Assembly (NCBI RefSeq): GCF_037975245.1
Contig: NC_092568.1
Coordinates: forward strand, 35,183,501 to 35,247,500
Direction of reading: 5' to 3'
Source of the DNA: Apostichopus japonicus
Lineage: Eukaryota > Echinodermata > Holothuroidea > Aspidochirotida > Stichopodidae
Length of the DNA stretch: 64,000 bases
The translations under genes and the position numbers were made by a program. Positions 26,524-32,726 of this stretch are shown one piece after another (position 1 is the stretch's first letter; every line of letters starts with the position of its first letter). The notes beneath the pieces are model-generated. The model worked only from the letters and a program-made list of their open reading frames with translations. It was not told where the DNA came from and made no database searches.

Positions 26524-26748
26524 ATGGGATCGGATACACCAAACATCTTCTCGTTCTCAGCTGAAGCCCTGGACGGTAGCAAGATTGATTTTGATCAGTA
26601 CAAAGGGAAGGTCCTACTCATAGAAAACGTTGCCTCCTTGTGAGGTACAACCATACGCGATTACCATCAGCTCAATGAGTTAATGGATCGCTTTGGTGAG
26701 AGGGGGCTGCAAGTGTTGGGCTTTCCATGTAACCAATTTGGATATCAG
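26524..26748 (+). CDS. Selenoprotein glutathione peroxidase, exon 1 (with in-frame TGA = Sec40)
   Basis: This is the first exon of a GPx1/GPx2-type glutathione peroxidase, which reduces hydrogen peroxide and lipid hydroperoxides with glutathione. From ATG 26,524 it reads [20 protein letters not shown] and continues to [15 protein letters not shown], with TGA at 26,641-26,643 at codon 40. This is exactly the catalytic selenocysteine position of the family. Further on come [11 protein letters not shown] (the conserved PCNQFG motif) and the donor CAG/GTTAGT at 26,749, phase 0. The open frame on both sides of the TGA and the conserved context show that the TGA is a Sec codon and not a nonsense mutation. 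Exons 2 and 3 join in frame to give 189 aa, close to the family's usual ~190-205. Confidence 0.93.
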
Positions 26749-26994
26749 GTTAGTGTAGTTATTTATTTCTCCCTCACCCCCCCTACCCTTCCCCTTTCTT
26801 CTTCTACGTCGCTGTTGGTATTGTTAACTGTCTTTCAGAAGCGTGCAAACAGAGTAGTAGAGAAATGACTAAACAGAAGTCCTATCAATGATGATAGATT
26901 TGGAATAAAAGATCAACATATGTGAAATGAAATGTTCCCAGAATGCCAAATTGGAAGACTCTTTACAAGCGTGGAACCCTACCCTAACCTATAC

Positions 26995-27022
26995 CAGGGA
27001 GTTGTTACATAACAACTCCCTG
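26995..27022. repeat. 13-bp perfect inverted repeat upstream of the hammerhead
   Basis: CAGGGAGTTGTTA, two bases, TAACAACTCCCTG: a strong hairpin about 140 bp before the ribozyme core. A diverged version of the CTATACCAGGGAG...CTCC-TGCCTAT sequence recurs at 30,179-30,220 in the GPx 3' flank. This suggests a repeat family whose left end this may be. Confidence 0.7.
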
Positions 27023-27163
27023 CCTATATCGTCACCCCGCGGACAATGAGAGTTACAGAAAGTTATAGAAAGTTATAGGAATATAGCCCATAATACACAT
27101 TCACACCAGTAGAATCACTGTGTCTTAGTGATAAGGACTTATAGTTCTGTGATACGAAGTTAG

Positions 27164-27219
27164 ATTCCTACCATCGCCTGATGAGTCCTAAAAGGACGAA
27201 ACCGGTCGTGAAGTGGAAT
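27164..27219 (+). ncRNA. Hammerhead ribozyme motif, type I, with minimal stem III
   Basis: All conserved core positions are present in order: CTGATGA (27,178-27,184), stem II GTCC/GGAC (27,185-27,188 with 27,194-27,197) closed by the loop TAAAA, GAAA (27,198-27,201), a self-complementary stem III strand ACCGGT (27,201-27,206), and the cleavage-site C at 27,207. Stem I forms from TCGC with GTGA next to the core and, beyond an internal loop, ATTCC (27,164-27,168) with GGAAT (27,215-27,219). Six self-complementary bases cannot fold into a hairpin, so stem III would form only between two molecules or two tandem copies. This is known for newt satellite and Penelope-associated hammerheads. It lies in GPx intron 1, sense strand. 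Cleavage in vivo is not shown. Confidence 0.88.
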
Positions 27220-27887
27220 TTTGCTGGTGTGTTGATCTTGAATTATCTATTACTTAATATCTGTCTTGCCATATAGAGAATGAAACAGAAAATGGAACAG
27301 ATTCTGTAGAGGTCATGTGCTTTGTCACTGTACAAAGTGTCTGACTGTCTGTAAACTTGTTTACCGAGAATTCAGGAATTAAATAAAAACCAATGGCTTT
27401 GCATATTTTATCTGATTTAGAAAATCAGATGACAACAGTCACAGAGCTAGACTTTACAAATACCAGTCCTATTATACTTATTGAACAGCCATGGATGAGT
27501 TACGAACTTTAAATGAATCCACCTGGCAGGCTCTACGTATTTCTTTGTCTTTAGATTCTTTGCTTTTTCTATAGATCCTTTGTTTTGTCTTGGCAACTGT
27601 TTTTTATTACAACGTCTGAACCCGCACTACATTTATTGGTGTATATACTACCTCGTTGTTCGCTTTGTACAAAGCCTGGCGTTGCTTTAGTCTCTGCATG
27701 CTAATTTGTAATTCGTTGAGGCGTCAACAATAACAACAAAACATCTTAGATCTGCCGCGGAATTTGTCACGTCATCCTGTCTGGTAAACGTAAACCCTCA
27801 TAAAACTTATAAACACGACCAACATAATACAAGTCTTATGTGTATCTGTTAGTCTAAATTGTGTTTGCCAAATTTTAACTTCGACCT

Positions 27888-28400
27888 TTCTATTTCAATT
27901 TCTTTATTCTAGTATAAATTATAAAATTTATAAATAGGACGCATAAAAATGAAACATAAAAGACGTAAACATGTACAAAAATGAAAGCATTAACTAAAAC
28001 AAGAAATAAGATAGAAGATTAGAAGTTTTAAAGATTAAAAGGATTTTAACAGAGATTCTAAGAACCCATATTGAATATAAATGGCTGCTCTGTAGATAAA
28101 CGAGTTCTTAAAAAGCATAATTCTAAAAGATGGCAAGATAGTAGGATTACGTAGATTGTACTTGTTGGTTCTATTGCACAGAGAGATCAACTCGGAGTGA
28201 AGTGGGTGATCTTTAGAACTATGTATCTTATGAATTCATTTTTAGCAGCAGTGTTTACTTTACCAACAAGGCTTTCATAGTCGAGATTAAATATATTTGA
28301 GCAGTATTTCAAGAAACTTCGGATTCTTTTCTTGTCCTTTTCAAGTAGAAGGTGTTACCAGACAGGAACTGCATACACTGCCCTAAAAGCTCCGCGAAAA
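27888..28400 (-). mobile_element. 5'-truncated LINE, C-terminal coding remnant and 3' tail
   Basis: Read on the minus strand, fragments such as LLLEKDKKRIRSFLKYCSNI, LVGKVNTAAKNEFIHKI and ELISLCNRTNKYNLR (with frameshifts) match the pattern of the region after the reverse transcriptase in non-LTR retrotransposons. The copy ends AATAAAGAAATTGAAATAG, as does a shorter copy at 1241-1312. It is dead and lies antisense in GPx intron 1. The clade is uncertain. Confidence 0.6.
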
Positions 28401-28839
28401 TAACACGGTTCTATGCAATTTTCTTATTAATAATCAATATTTTATTGAGTTATCTGTCGTTGAGCTGAACTAAATTCGCCAGAGTCCGTATATTCTACAA
28501 ACTTCAAACAAAATGTGCAAGCCCCGCCCAACAGATCATGCGCCAATAAAATCACTTTTTTTTTGTTTACGAAGGTTAGGCCTGGGTCTTACTTTCAATT
28601 TCGTGGCTAGCCTGTGCTAGGTCCATTCTCTTGAAAAGTTTCTATCTTTCGGTCTTCCCGATGTAACTTGCAAATTGAAATTATGCCTTACTCTAGAGAT
28701 CAAGCATGATGCCAACCAACTCGAAATCATTTTTTCCTAGAGCCGGATCTCGAATGAGATACTTTGAACAGACTTTGTTAATGAAAAGGAGGTTAACGAT
28801 AAAGGCAAATGAATATATCTGAACCTCTGGACATACACT

Positions 28840-28913
28840 CAGCGTCCATAGCCTAGTGGTTAGGGTGTCCGCATATAAAGCGGGAGGTCCACCGTTCACA
28901 CGGTGGAGGCTGG
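28840..28913 (+). pseudogene. tRNA-like sequence (tRNA pseudogene or SINE head)
   Basis: An A-box-like TAGCCTAGTGGTTAGGGT, an anticodon-arm-like CCGC/GCGG stem with a seven-base loop ATATAAA, and a T-arm-like CCACCG/CGGTGG stem are all present. The acceptor stem pairs only in part (CAGC/GCTG), and the B box (GTTCACAC) lacks the conserved GA. I therefore read it as tRNA-derived and probably non-functional as a tRNA. Confidence 0.5.
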
Positions 28914-28991
28914 AAGTTTTTACACTGTTCTTGATTTTACAGAAACATGGAGAGCTTTGAAACTTGAACTGCATTTATCTTTCTCATTCAG

Positions 28992-29768: not shown

Positions 29769-30042
29769 ATTTCCTTTGTTCAAGAAGATCGAGGTGAACG
29801 GCGCAAACACTCATCCCATTTTCAATTTCCTGAAGACTGCATTACCAATGCCTTCGGATGATCCATACCACTTACTAGACGATCCATCCAAAGTTATTTG
29901 GCGTCCACTTCAACGGAATGATCTGAAATGGAACTTTGAGAAATTTCTTGTCGGGCCTGACGGTGTTCCTTTCAAAAGATACGGACCTAGCTTCGAGACC
30001 AAACTAATTGCTCCCGAGATTGAGGCACTTCTTCAGTCATAG
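29769..30042 (+). CDS. Selenoprotein glutathione peroxidase, exon 3 with stop
   Basis: The terminal exon reads [38 protein letters not shown] and then [20 protein letters not shown], ending IEALLQS and TAG. The segment WNFEKFL with its Trp and Asn, together with Gln in exon 1, completes the Sec-Gln-Trp-Asn catalytic tetrad of glutathione peroxidases. No signal peptide is present at the protein's N-terminus, so a cytosolic enzyme of the GPx1/2 type is expected. All three exons join in frame (570 nt). Decoding of the TGA requires a SECIS element in the 3' UTR, which I could not place with confidence. Confidence 0.94.
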
Positions 30043-30464
30043 CTCTTTGTATTTATCTTTTTTTATAAGGTGATTTGTTAAATCTTCTATCATTATCAGT
30101 GCTGGATTATCCAACAGGCTCAAGATTAAGGCCCCTTAATTGGTCTAGTTGCCCACGTAAACACTTTCAGGGAAACACCTATACCAGGGAGCTGCTACTC
30201 TAACTCCTGCCTATACTATACAGATTCACCCAATATAGGTTATGGGTATAGGACACCAATATATTGCTTCCACTGAAAACTCTGACAGTCATTGTTGGAT
30301 TTAAAAGATAACTGCCAGCCATTAGTAACTTCCCCAGAGCAACAAACTACAAGCTTGTGAAGAACCAAAAAAAAAAACGATTTGCTATTGTTTCATTGAA
30401 ATATCTCTCCAAAATGAATGACTAATCTAAACCCTTATTGAGAGATATACCAGCAGTAGTTGCA

Positions 30465-30546
<82 letters not shown>

Positions 30547-32726
30547 AGATTTTCTATTTATGCCTTTACTTTGCATATTAATAACATCGACCACATATAA
30601 TTTGCAGTTACTATATACGCTTGACAATTCTACTTGCTGAAAGAACTTGATATTTATCACGTAAATGGACTCCATTGGAGTAAACATCTATGCTTTTGTC
30701 TTATCGCACATGTAAATTGATATTTTCAGTAAGAGGTTATCATGTGAGTAATATACTAACATCGTAAACAGGTAGGATTTAAAGCTTAGGCCTACAGCAA
30801 ATTAAACAACTCAAATAAACATACATGAAGTTAGCAGATGTGAAAATAAAGGTCACCGAAATGTTGTTTTCACTGCGGTATATTAGATATACGGTGACGT
30901 GGCATTCTCTAATTGGCTAACTATGCTTAATACATTAAAACCTTTCAATTTATGAATATTCAAGAAGGTTAACGACAAAGATGTTAGCCTGTGTGAAGTG
31001 GACTGCGTGGAAATTCCAAACTATACCTCGGGGCATATGTAGATACCGCATTTCTAAGTAATCAAAATATATAGTGTCTAAACTTTCCGATGTTGCCATA
31101 AAACGAGTTCACACATCCACGATGCCTTTTTTTTTAATATTTAAAGAAAGAATTCTTTGAAACAAAAGCAAAACAAAATAGATAACATTTACAGTACTAC
31201 CGTATCTGTACATACAGCAGCTTGTTCAGTATGCTAATTTCCTCCTGGTGAACTTTGACCTATACCCAGTATTTTACCGTATAGAGAGGCTTAACAAAAC
31301 ACACAGTAAAATTTGTTTCTCGTTGTTTAATTTGATCTCGAAATATGGCATCTTTAAGGTTTCCTCAAAATGCAAAGATTCTGTCCTGTAATGTTGCTAC
31401 AATTTATCATTTTGCTGCAAAAGGTTAGAGATGTAATACAAATGATCAAAATTTATTATTTAGCTTCACACTGTTGAAACGATGACTTTCTGAGGGAAAA
31501 ATAATCATTTTGTTGCAAAAATGTCCAATTGGCGAAATTTATTAAGTCAGTCTATTGTTATGCTGTTAATTTTTAAAGAAGTGACATTTGATGATTCATT
31601 ATTTTGTTATCTTGCAGCGAAATTTCAAGGAATTGGTTATGTTGTTGCAAATTGTTCACCTATATTTAGCTTGAAAATTGTTTCTATATTTTACAGATCG
31701 ATTTTTACTACGTCAGTTTAACGTTTCCAATATCACAACATTTCAAGTAGGCCAATCATCGCAGAGGTTTCTTTCTGCATTAACAACAACAAAACCAATA
31801 AACAAACGGAATGGGGGAGAAAAGAAAAGAAAAACAATCCAATAAAATTTACCACTCCTGCAACAATAATCCATTACATGTATGGTTTACATTAGCAGAG
31901 AATAATCCAGAGAATGACACGTGGAATCATTATGTGTCGGTCAAAAATAATCTAAGCGATTAACATATTATTTAGCATATAGCCTAATCAAAATGCATAA
32001 TTTAGCATCATTCCTTAAATTTATCAAAAGCTCCGTATTCTTCCTCAAGATGACTTACCGGTATGTTTAACACTTTACTTTCAGATTCTTCTCTTCTTAC
32101 GAATATAATTCTAAAATTTTCGTTTTAATCTGGAGGCTCTAGGATTCTGTTGTCTTCATTTCAGTATACTTTTATCTATCTATGTACTCTGGTTTCAAAT
32201 GTTTCTCTGTTTTCTGTCACTCCTTTTATTGTCATGAATAGTCATGAGGTGTTACAGTCTATTTTATGATGATGTTACATAAAATACCCATCGGAGAACG
32301 TGTAGTATCGGAAGCTTTCAATAGATGGAAAATGTCATGACTTTTCTTTATACAATAAAAGAGAAGCGATATGTTCACCGATCTGGTTTCCTATTATTTA
32401 CTTTTGATCTTTTTCTTTTCTGGGGATGGGGTGGGGTGGGTGGGGGAAGGGGTGATGGCTGAGGGGGGGTAGTATCACGAGTTTTTCCCGAGATTATTAT
32501 GTTCACCAATCTTACATGTGTTGTCGTAATGAACATATATCTGCGATATACAGAAGACAGAGTTTGTGGAAGGCACATGCATATTCCATGGCCGGAGAGA
32601 CCCATTTTTGAAATTTTACTTAGGCATCTGGTAACGACAGCCTGTTTGCGATACCATTACTATCTATTGAGTGAATTGTATAGTATTCTTACAAACAACT
32701 GATTAACTTCTTGTTGCAAGAGCACA
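30043..32726. other. GPx 3' UTR and gene-free flank
   Basis: AATAAA occurs at about 30,814 and 30,842 and could end the GPx mRNA. The stretch holds a 9-bp-stem hairpin (30,401-30,448), a long (AT)n, a diverged copy of the CTATACCAGGGAG repeat (30,179-30,220) and C/G tracts near 32,420. No exon recognised. Confidence 0.5.
30470..30544. repeat. (AT)n microsatellite, ~75 bp
   Basis: Uninterrupted TA/AT dinucleotides. It sits within the probable 3' UTR of the GPx gene and is likely to be length-variable. Confidence 0.95.

What the first reader, a model, noticed from the sequence alone, without database searches (positions are those of the whole stretch)
27164..27219. Hammerhead ribozyme in the first intron of a selenoprotein GPx gene
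Seen directly: CTGATGA, GTCC-TAAAA-GGAC, GAAA, self-complementary ACCGGT, then C, with stem I closing on both sides of an internal loop. Every invariant core base is present and in order. Established: type I hammerheads with a stem III too short to fold alone occur in Penelope-like elements and act as dimers. Inference: this is a Penelope or retrozyme relic, or a domesticated intronic ribozyme, sitting sense-strand in a host transcript where cleavage at 27,207 would cut the GPx pre-mRNA.
Basis: partly seen in the sequence, partly recalled or inferred. Interest (0 to 1): 0.88.

Follow-up and report, generated by a model that had tools for sequence, protein, structure and literature searches.

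The report
Decayed tRNA-ribozyme jumping element in intron
The self-cutting RNA motif seen inside this echinoderm antioxidant-enzyme gene is real in sequence, but it is one old, worn copy of a short mobile element, present in hundreds of copies in the genome, that joins a tRNA-like head to a hammerhead ribozyme; this resembles a combination reported before from blood flukes.

Summary
All hammerhead core bases lie at 27,164-27,219 (+), predicted cut after 27,207, inside intron 1 (26,749-28,991) of a GPx gene with an in-frame TGA. The copy misses Rfam's gathering scores but matches HH9 at E 8e-6.

It is not a single-copy ribozyme. The same core occurs exactly at 328 places in this 672-Mb echinoderm genome, against 0 for the reversed pattern. 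In 20 of 20 sampled places a tRNA-type B box stands just 5' of it; 615 places carry B box plus hammerhead.

The family is non-coding: arm CACACCAG, A box, B box, minimal type I hammerhead with palindromic stem III, T5 run, arm CTGGTGTG. Several loci hold head-to-tail units of 340-341 bp; 15 of 20 sampled copies lie beside (TA)n. This is retrozyme anatomy; tRNA plus hammerhead has a published precedent, schistosome Sm-alpha. The window copy is old: 81% identical to its best-scoring relative, B box mutated, one stem I mismatch.

Best reading: decayed copy of an echinoderm tRNA-headed retrozyme. Penelope origin and domestication are not supported. Cleavage and pol III transcription are untested.

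The parts
26524..26748 (+). GPx exon with in-frame TGA (ASL-U-GTT context); host gene upstream of the intron
   Evidence: translation; PF00255 E 3e-26
26749..28991 (+). host intron (GT..AG) holding the element; the junctions are inferred from the reading frame
   Evidence: sequence; exon context NQFGYQ | ENSKNEE
27063..27275 (+). diverged copy of the tRNA-like/hammerhead repeat (about 80% to the family)
   Evidence: the alignment to the L051 unit runs on weakly to 27360
27102..27118 (+). left arm CACACCAGTAGAATCAC
   Evidence: present in the 45 aligned copies, which were picked for having both arms
27121..27133 (+). remnant of A box (family TGGTCGAGTGGT)
27159..27168 (+). remnant of B box GTTAGATTCC (family GGTTCGATTCC), overlaps outer stem I
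27164..27168 (+). outer stem I, 5' strand (ATTCC)
   Evidence: HH9 alignment
27172..27177 (+). inner stem I, 5' strand CATCGC (family CTTCGC; A27173 mismatched)
27178..27184 (+). hammerhead core CTGATGA
27185..27197 (+). stem II GTCC-TAAAA-GGAC
27198..27207 (+). GAA core, palindromic stem III ACCGGT, cleavage-site C27207 (predicted cut 27207/27208)
27208..27219 (+). stem I 3' strands GTGAAG and GGAAT
27219..27222 (+). T4 run (T5 or more in 62 of 74 family copies): possible pol III terminator
27224..27231 (+). right arm CTGGTGTG, complementary to the left arm

Best explanation
The feature is an old, 5'-truncated solo copy of a non-autonomous, non-coding retroelement of the retrozyme kind, dispersed through an echinoderm genome. 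SHOWN from sequence: the family unit has a left arm, a tRNA-type A box and B box about 43 nt apart, then a minimal type I hammerhead whose outer stem I uses the B-box strand ATTCC, then a T5 run and a complementary right arm. Units occur as 340-341-bp head-to-tail dimers and a trimer, some with an inverted piece, and copies mostly end beside (TA)n tracts. INFERRED: RNA from tandem copies is cut at each hammerhead, most efficiently as dimers joined through ACCGGU. The roughly 341-nt monomers are closed into circles by a tRNA ligase, as published for animal retrozymes. A partner reverse transcriptase (a Penelope-like element is a candidate) copies them, often more than once round, into microsatellite-rich sites. 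The tRNA-like part probably served as an internal pol III promoter. The window copy most likely has no function of its own in the GPx gene.
For: Genome-wide repeat: 55 DNA matches including the window itself, 874 candidates; 328 exact cores against 0 reversed; 615 B-box-plus-hammerhead places at up to 3 mismatches against 0 reversed. tRNA link: 20 of 20 sampled cores have a B box within 30 nt 5', against 92 of 20,000 shuffled 30-mers. A-B start distance is 42-46 nt in the 32 of 74 copies where both boxes were found. Tandem units: 341 bp in L051, L085 (trimer) and L086, 340 bp in L087. Unit GC 41.9%; longest frame listed in the L051 tandem 73 codons. (TA)6 or longer beside the 3' end in 15 of 20 sampled copies, against 23 of 5,000 random window stretches and 6 of 261 flank stretches. 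Core intact in 62 of 74 copies, ACCGGTC in 65 of 74. The circularised 341-nt unit is predicted to be well folded (z -3.1 against 100 shuffles) with stems I and II paired as in a hammerhead. In 34 copies picked by similarity the hammerhead core is the most conserved part: 98.8%, against 94.6% for the tRNA-like part and 88.4% for the 5' flank.
Against: No RNA data: cleavage, circles and pol III transcription are all inferred. In the predicted circular fold, and in the consensus fold of 45 copies, the CUG of the catalytic core pairs with CGG of ACCGGU, so the monomer fold does not show a free core or stem III. A dimer was not folded. Rfam's tRNA model does not match the head at E up to 5, and ARAGORN finds it only at relaxed cut-offs, so 'tRNA-derived' rests mainly on A and B boxes and their spacing. 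Covariation support for the fold is nearly nil: 1 of 35 pairs changed on both sides. No target-site duplications could be scored because of the microsatellites. No reverse transcriptase partner was shown: the one intact Penelope-like frame examined shares no sequence with the unit. The conservation figures come from copies picked by similarity to the window copy, so they are biased towards the module.
Confidence: 0.83

Rival explanations
1. A domesticated intronic hammerhead that regulates GPx pre-mRNA, like the conserved intronic hammerheads of amniotes.
For: Sense orientation; core and stems II and III intact in a copy otherwise about 20% diverged; best Rfam match is HH9, which as I recall is an amniote intronic family.
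Against: It belongs to a family of hundreds; the hammerhead is also the best conserved part in the 34 copies compared, so its retention here needs no local selection; stem I has a mismatch; HH9 gathering score missed by 21 bits.
Confidence: 0.05
2. A solo terminal repeat (pseudo-LTR) of an autonomous Penelope-like element, rather than a non-autonomous retrozyme.
For: Minimal stem III, tandem units, inverted 5' pieces and microsatellite-side insertion are Penelope-like traits (partly recalled). GIY-YIG matches (37) and one frame with RT plus GIY-YIG exist in the genome, and one copy of that element also ends at (TA)n while another does not.
Against: tblastn of the 910-aa frame against 47 held loci, some overlapping, hit only 3; two of these are duplicated copies of one region with Penelope debris 0.8-0.9 kb from the unit. 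The Penelope locus L056 has no similarity to the unit.
Confidence: 0.12
3. A pol III-transcribed tRNA SINE that carries the hammerhead only as a passenger and moves as a linear LINE-dependent RNA.
For: A and B boxes at tRNA spacing, T5 run, dispersed copies.
Against: Head-to-tail 340-341-bp units without a break and the high conservation of the hammerhead in the copies compared fit a circle or multimer intermediate better. The copies viewed end well 3' of the T run.
Confidence: 0.1

Closest known systems
Metazoan non-LTR retrozymes (Cervera & de la Pena 2020, PMC7229834; parts 1-4 of 6 read, plus a term search)
   Same: Type I hammerhead, tandem units of 150-450 bp, GC below 50%, dispersed copies, co-existing Penelope-like elements
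   Different: Carries a tRNA-like head with A and B boxes whose 3' strand doubles as hammerhead stem I; complementary terminal arms; the main text of that paper does not contain the word echinoderm (term search; its supplement was not seen)
Schistosome Sm-alpha / Sj-alpha SINE-like elements (PMC2770079 and PMC4918200, passages only)
   Same: tRNA-related sequence plus hammerhead in one dispersed repeat; [quoted passage not shown]
   Different: Different phylum; Sm-alpha keeps a recognisable tRNA-Gln, here no Rfam tRNA match. No sequence comparison with Sm-alpha was made
Minimal hammerheads of Penelope-like elements and Terminons (PMC7761336, PMC6155905, passages only)
   Same: Type I with stem III lacking or very weak, thought to cleave as a dimer
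   Different: No Penelope reading frame attached in the loci examined; stem III ACCGGU; a separate ACGU-type hammerhead set also exists in this genome
Amniote intronic hammerheads (RF02275 HH9 by name; PMC6155905, passages only)
   Same: Best Rfam match; intronic, sense strand
   Different: Score below gathering; multi-copy and decayed; no conservation shown. That HH9 is an amniote intronic family is recalled

Membership tests
Type I hammerhead ribozyme | Invariant core CTGANGA..GAA..NUH in order with three helices, open at stem I | tested here: met
   Sequence; one A.A mismatch in stem I of the window copy; stem III only as a palindrome (needs a dimer)
Type I hammerhead ribozyme | Rfam gathering score | tested here: not met
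   Window copy: none. Relatives: 50 of 59 hits over the RF00163 cut-off
Type I hammerhead ribozyme | Hammerhead fold as the predicted minimum | tested here: inconclusive
   Stems I and II form, but CUG of the core pairs with CGG in the circular and consensus folds
Type I hammerhead ribozyme | Self-cleavage with magnesium | not testable with these tools
   bench assay needed
Metazoan non-LTR retrozyme | Hammerhead in tandem units of 150-450 bp | tested here: met
   341 bp in L051, L085 (trimer), L086; 340 bp in L087. The window copy itself is solo
Metazoan non-LTR retrozyme | GC below 50%, no coding frame | tested here: met
   unit GC 41.9%; longest frame in the L051 tandem 73 codons
Metazoan non-LTR retrozyme | Expression as circular RNA | not testable with these tools
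   no RNA data
Metazoan non-LTR retrozyme | Target-site duplications | tested here: inconclusive
   by eye only: many ends lie in (TA)n, one in (TCA)n and one in (CT)n, so duplications cannot be told
tRNA-derived SINE | A and B boxes at tRNA spacing | tested here: met
   20 of 20 sampled cores with a B box; A-B distance 42-46 nt in 32 of 74 copies; in the window copy both are mutated
tRNA-derived SINE | Recognisable tRNA cloverleaf | tested here: inconclusive
   RF00005 no match at E up to 5; ARAGORN sense-strand hits in copies against shuffles: 42 of 45 against 37 of 180 at 70%, 21 of 45 against 4 of 180 at 80%, 1 against 0 at 90%, 0 against 0 at 100%
Penelope-like element | RT plus GIY-YIG frame in the element | tested here: not met
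   no attached frame among 47 held loci; the Penelope locus L056 lacks the unit. Not a survey of the 328 or 615 places
Domesticated intronic hammerhead | Conservation in orthologous introns | not testable with these tools
   no other echinoderm genome held

The most novel reading that the evidence does not exclude
The 136-nt arm-to-arm module is a self-contained pol III gene for a self-processing RNA. Transcription would start near CACACCAG, be driven by internal A and B boxes, and stop at the T5 run about 11 nt past the ribozyme cut. The same ATTCC strand serves as B box and T-arm in the DNA and tRNA-like fold, and as outer stem I in the ribozyme. The RNA would thus switch between a tRNA-like form and a hammerhead that trims its own U-tail and, by read-through of tandem copies, releases 341-nt circles that carry their own promoter into each new insertion.
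Probability: 0.25. Interest if true: 0.62.

Novelty: new variant of a known kind. Interest (0 to 1): 0.38.

Why it matters
A review seen in passages says that animal retrozyme repeats show no conserved motif that would point to their helper element, and to my knowledge (recalled) it is unsettled which polymerase makes their RNA. A family with hundreds of copies whose ribozyme is fused to A and B boxes makes the second question directly testable. It also suggests that the tRNA-plus-hammerhead design known from schistosomes either arose more than once or is older than thought (inference; no sequence comparison was made). For the GPx gene itself the finding is ordinary: an old mobile-element insertion in an intron.

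Tried and rejected
Single-copy ribozyme: rejected because of the genome-wide family. Element as part of a Penelope-like element: a lead from L026/L032 (tblastn to the Penelope frame) was followed by fetching more DNA. The two loci turned out to be duplicated copies of one region in which the unit is a solo insertion 0.8-0.9 kb from Penelope debris, so the lead failed. Penelope-type hammerhead with the GAAACGTCGTG end: 0 matches. The looser pattern gave 23 against 5 in the reversed control, a different ACGU-type set; of the 4 loci viewed, one (L082) has a weak 33-aa match to the Penelope frame and three have none. tRNA-like/hammerhead pattern in viral contigs: 1 match, a phage tRNA array without a hammerhead, taken as chance. 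Paper searches: (hammerhead, polymerase III promoter, Schistosoma, satellite) gave 0 papers. One search listed 3, of which I looked into one (PMC10886601, passages). One search listed 1, not opened. One search listed 15 of 941, none with the term hammerhead ribozyme. led to the schistosome precedent. A SECIS element was sought 3' of the GPx gene at 30000-32000 and none was found at E up to 1. Pfam found no family in window 29869-30039, the stretch taken by eye for the last GPx exon.

The first regex script printed nothing because of a greedy pattern and was redone. Of 92 regex matches to the hammerhead in the held loci, 18 were dropped as identical contexts. For the alignment only the 45 distinct copies with both arms were kept. 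For one search, rows under 60% identity to the consensus in a part were left out of that part, and the rows kept are printed there (25 of 34 for the 5' flank, 33 for the tRNA-like part, 32 for the 3' tail, 34 for the others). The A-box flag (19 of 20) came from a loose pattern that also flags truncated copies and is not used.

Full report
OBSERVATION. Stem I pairs ATTCC 27164-27168 with GGAAT 27215-27219 and CATCGC 27172-27177 with GTGAAG 27208-27213. The core is CTGATGA, stem II is GTCC/GGAC, then GAA, the palindrome ACCGGT and C27207. At Rfam gathering thresholds the window gives only a tRNA-like hit at 28842-28911. In a short search the hammerhead is found as RF02275 HH9 with 30.9 bits, E 8.4e-6, and the better kept relative L051 scores 40.0 bits, E 5.8e-9. 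The A at 27173 is a mismatch; 47 of 74 copies have CTTCGC/GTGAAG there. The host gene is a glutathione peroxidase: exon 26524-26748, PF00255 E 3e-26 with the in-frame TGA read as Cys. No SECIS element was found by Rfam in 30000-32000 at E up to 1, so 'selenoprotein' rests on the TGA in GPx context.

ORGANISM. The genome has 671.6 Mb in 35 contigs. Contig C35 (16,099 bp) is a mitochondrial genome. Of the codes tried, its COX1 looks most like the COX1 proteins I recall with ATA as Ile and AAA as Asn, the echinoderm code (a judgement by eye). The tRNA order is that of sea urchins and sea cucumbers (recalled, not from a call).

A DISPERSED FAMILY. A search with 27080-27320 gave 55 matches from 874 candidates, one of them the window itself; the others are 76-88% identical over parts of the query. 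The hammerhead core CTGATGAGTCC-N4-7-GGACGAAAC occurs exactly at 328 places, its reversed control at 0. GGTTCGATTCCTACCTTCGCCTGATGAGTCC occurs at 615 places with up to 3 mismatches, its control at 0. RF00163 finds 59 hits, 50 over the cut-off (a lower bound by the tool's own note).

THE tRNA-LIKE HEAD. One search lists the first 100 of the 328 places (contigs C1-C9). I fetched 20 of these: every fifth, one swapped because it was already held. All 20 have a B box (GGTTCGANTCC, up to 2 changes) within 30 nt 5' of CTGATGA; shuffled 30-mers have one in 92 of 20,000. In 74 distinct copies an exact B box is found in 48 and TGGYNNAGTGGT in 45. The A-to-B start distance is 42-46 nt, mostly 43, in the 32 copies with both, which is the spacing of tRNA genes (recalled). 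Rfam's tRNA model does not hit the head at E up to 5. ARAGORN finds a sense-strand tRNA in 42 of 45 copies against 37 of 180 shuffles at a 70% cut-off, in 21 against 4 at 80%, in 1 against 0 at 90%, and in none at 100%. The head is thus promoter-like more than a preserved tRNA. The last five B-box bases, ATTCC, form the outer stem I of the hammerhead with GGAAT; these pairs hold in 43 or 44 of 45 aligned copies. Only 1 of 35 pairs in that consensus fold shows a change on both sides, so covariation says little. A T run of five or more follows the cut site in 62 of 74 copies.

UNIT AND ENDS. Head-to-tail units of 341 bp occur in L051, L085 (three in a row, then one inverted copy) and L086, and of 340 bp in L087; L084 has a 205-bp pair. 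Copies differ at the 5' end and mostly stop at one of two 3' points, after TTTACTATATAT or after CACATTCA(ATTCTTAT), often running into (TA)n; one runs into (TCA)n and one into (CT)n. (TA)6 or longer lies 45-200 nt 3' of the hammerhead core match in 15 of 20 sampled copies, against 23 of 5,000 random window stretches and 6 of 261 distant flank stretches. Inverted 5' pieces were seen by eye in L017, L021, L024 and L030. In 34 copies chosen by similarity the hammerhead core has 98.8% identity, the right side 98.7%, the left arm 97.8%, the tRNA-like part 94.6%, the 5' flank 88.4% and the 3' tail 79.1% (biased by the way copies were found). The 341-nt unit folded as a circle has z -3.1 against 100 shuffles. 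It forms stems I and II, but the CUG of the core pairs with CGG of ACCGGU, as in the consensus fold. A free core and stem III would need the dimer, which was not folded.

PARTNER. The genome gave 37 GIY-YIG matches. L056 has an open frame of 910 codons with RT and GIY-YIG domains. One of its copies ends at (TA)n and another does not. It shares no sequence with the unit. Its 3' part contains GGGTTTATACCCGAAACGTCGTG, which looks like the second half of a minimal hammerhead, but CTGANGA is not kept. A separate set of ACGU-type minimal hammerheads gave 23 matches against 5 in the reversed control. A Penelope-like partner therefore remains an inference.

THE WINDOW COPY. It spans about 27063-27275. 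Its best-scoring relative is 81% identical over query 23-192; shorter pieces reach 88%. Many other copies are 95-99% identical to the L051 unit, others 82-94%. The B box reads GTTAGATTCC and 8 bases before it are missing. The ribozyme part 27164-27219 differs from the L051 unit at two places, one in stem I and one in loop II. Because the ribozyme is the best conserved part in the copies compared, its survival here is no proof of a local function.

COMPARISON WITH PRINT. Animal retrozymes are described as 150-450-bp tandem repeats with type I hammerheads and GC below 50%, expressed as RNAs of about 170-400 nt (PMC7229834, parts 1-4 of 6 read). Its main text does not contain the words SINE, echinoderm or polymerase III. 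[quoted passage not shown] PMC2770079 (passages) reports a tRNA-Gln-derived SINE family similar to Sm-alpha and the hammerhead within Sm-alpha. The echinoderm family is therefore a new variant of a known kind. My claim that it is not described rests on searches in an open-licence library only; the 2014 paper on Penelope-like elements and hammerheads was seen only as a reference.

VERDICT. Observation confirmed; retrozyme relic supported; Penelope relic in the strict sense and domestication not supported by what was tested. The family is more interesting than the copy: a ribozyme whose stem I is also a B box is a testable design.

Noticed in passing
window 28840-28913 (+): A tRNA-Tyr(ata)-like sequence, probably the head of a second, different tRNA SINE in the same intron; by eye, similar pieces lie beside hammerhead copies in L001, L013 and L016.
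   Followed up: no
G000 23 places (L079-L082 viewed): A second set of minimal hammerheads, mostly CTGAYGA-AGATCCTGCTAGGATC-GAAACGTC, of the type known (recalled) from Penelope-like elements; in L081 stem I looks unusually long.
   Followed up: partly
G000:C9, four pairs near 34.93, 34.94, 35.01 and 35.58 Mb; L084: Pairs of hammerhead units exactly 205 bp apart, repeated at four places: a shorter unit or a duplicated locus.
   Followed up: partly
L012 1419-1586: Two hammerheads 167 bp apart joined by a 24+24-nt palindrome (GAATGCGTATAAATTGGCTTTGTA/TACAAAGCCAATTTATACGCATTC), as if made by strand switching.
   Followed up: no
L056 3' of the 910-codon frame: GGGTTTATACCCGAAACGTCGTG in a Penelope-like element resembles the 3' half of a minimal hammerhead without its CTGANGA.
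   Followed up: partly
G000:C29 14745-16086 and 30842-31219: COX1-like matches on a second contig besides the 16.1-kb mitochondrial contig C35: nuclear mitochondrial DNA or a second mitochondrial copy.
   Followed up: no
window 30000-32000: No SECIS hit by Rfam at E up to 1 although the GPx exon has an in-frame TGA; the element may lie further 3' or be divergent.
   Followed up: partly
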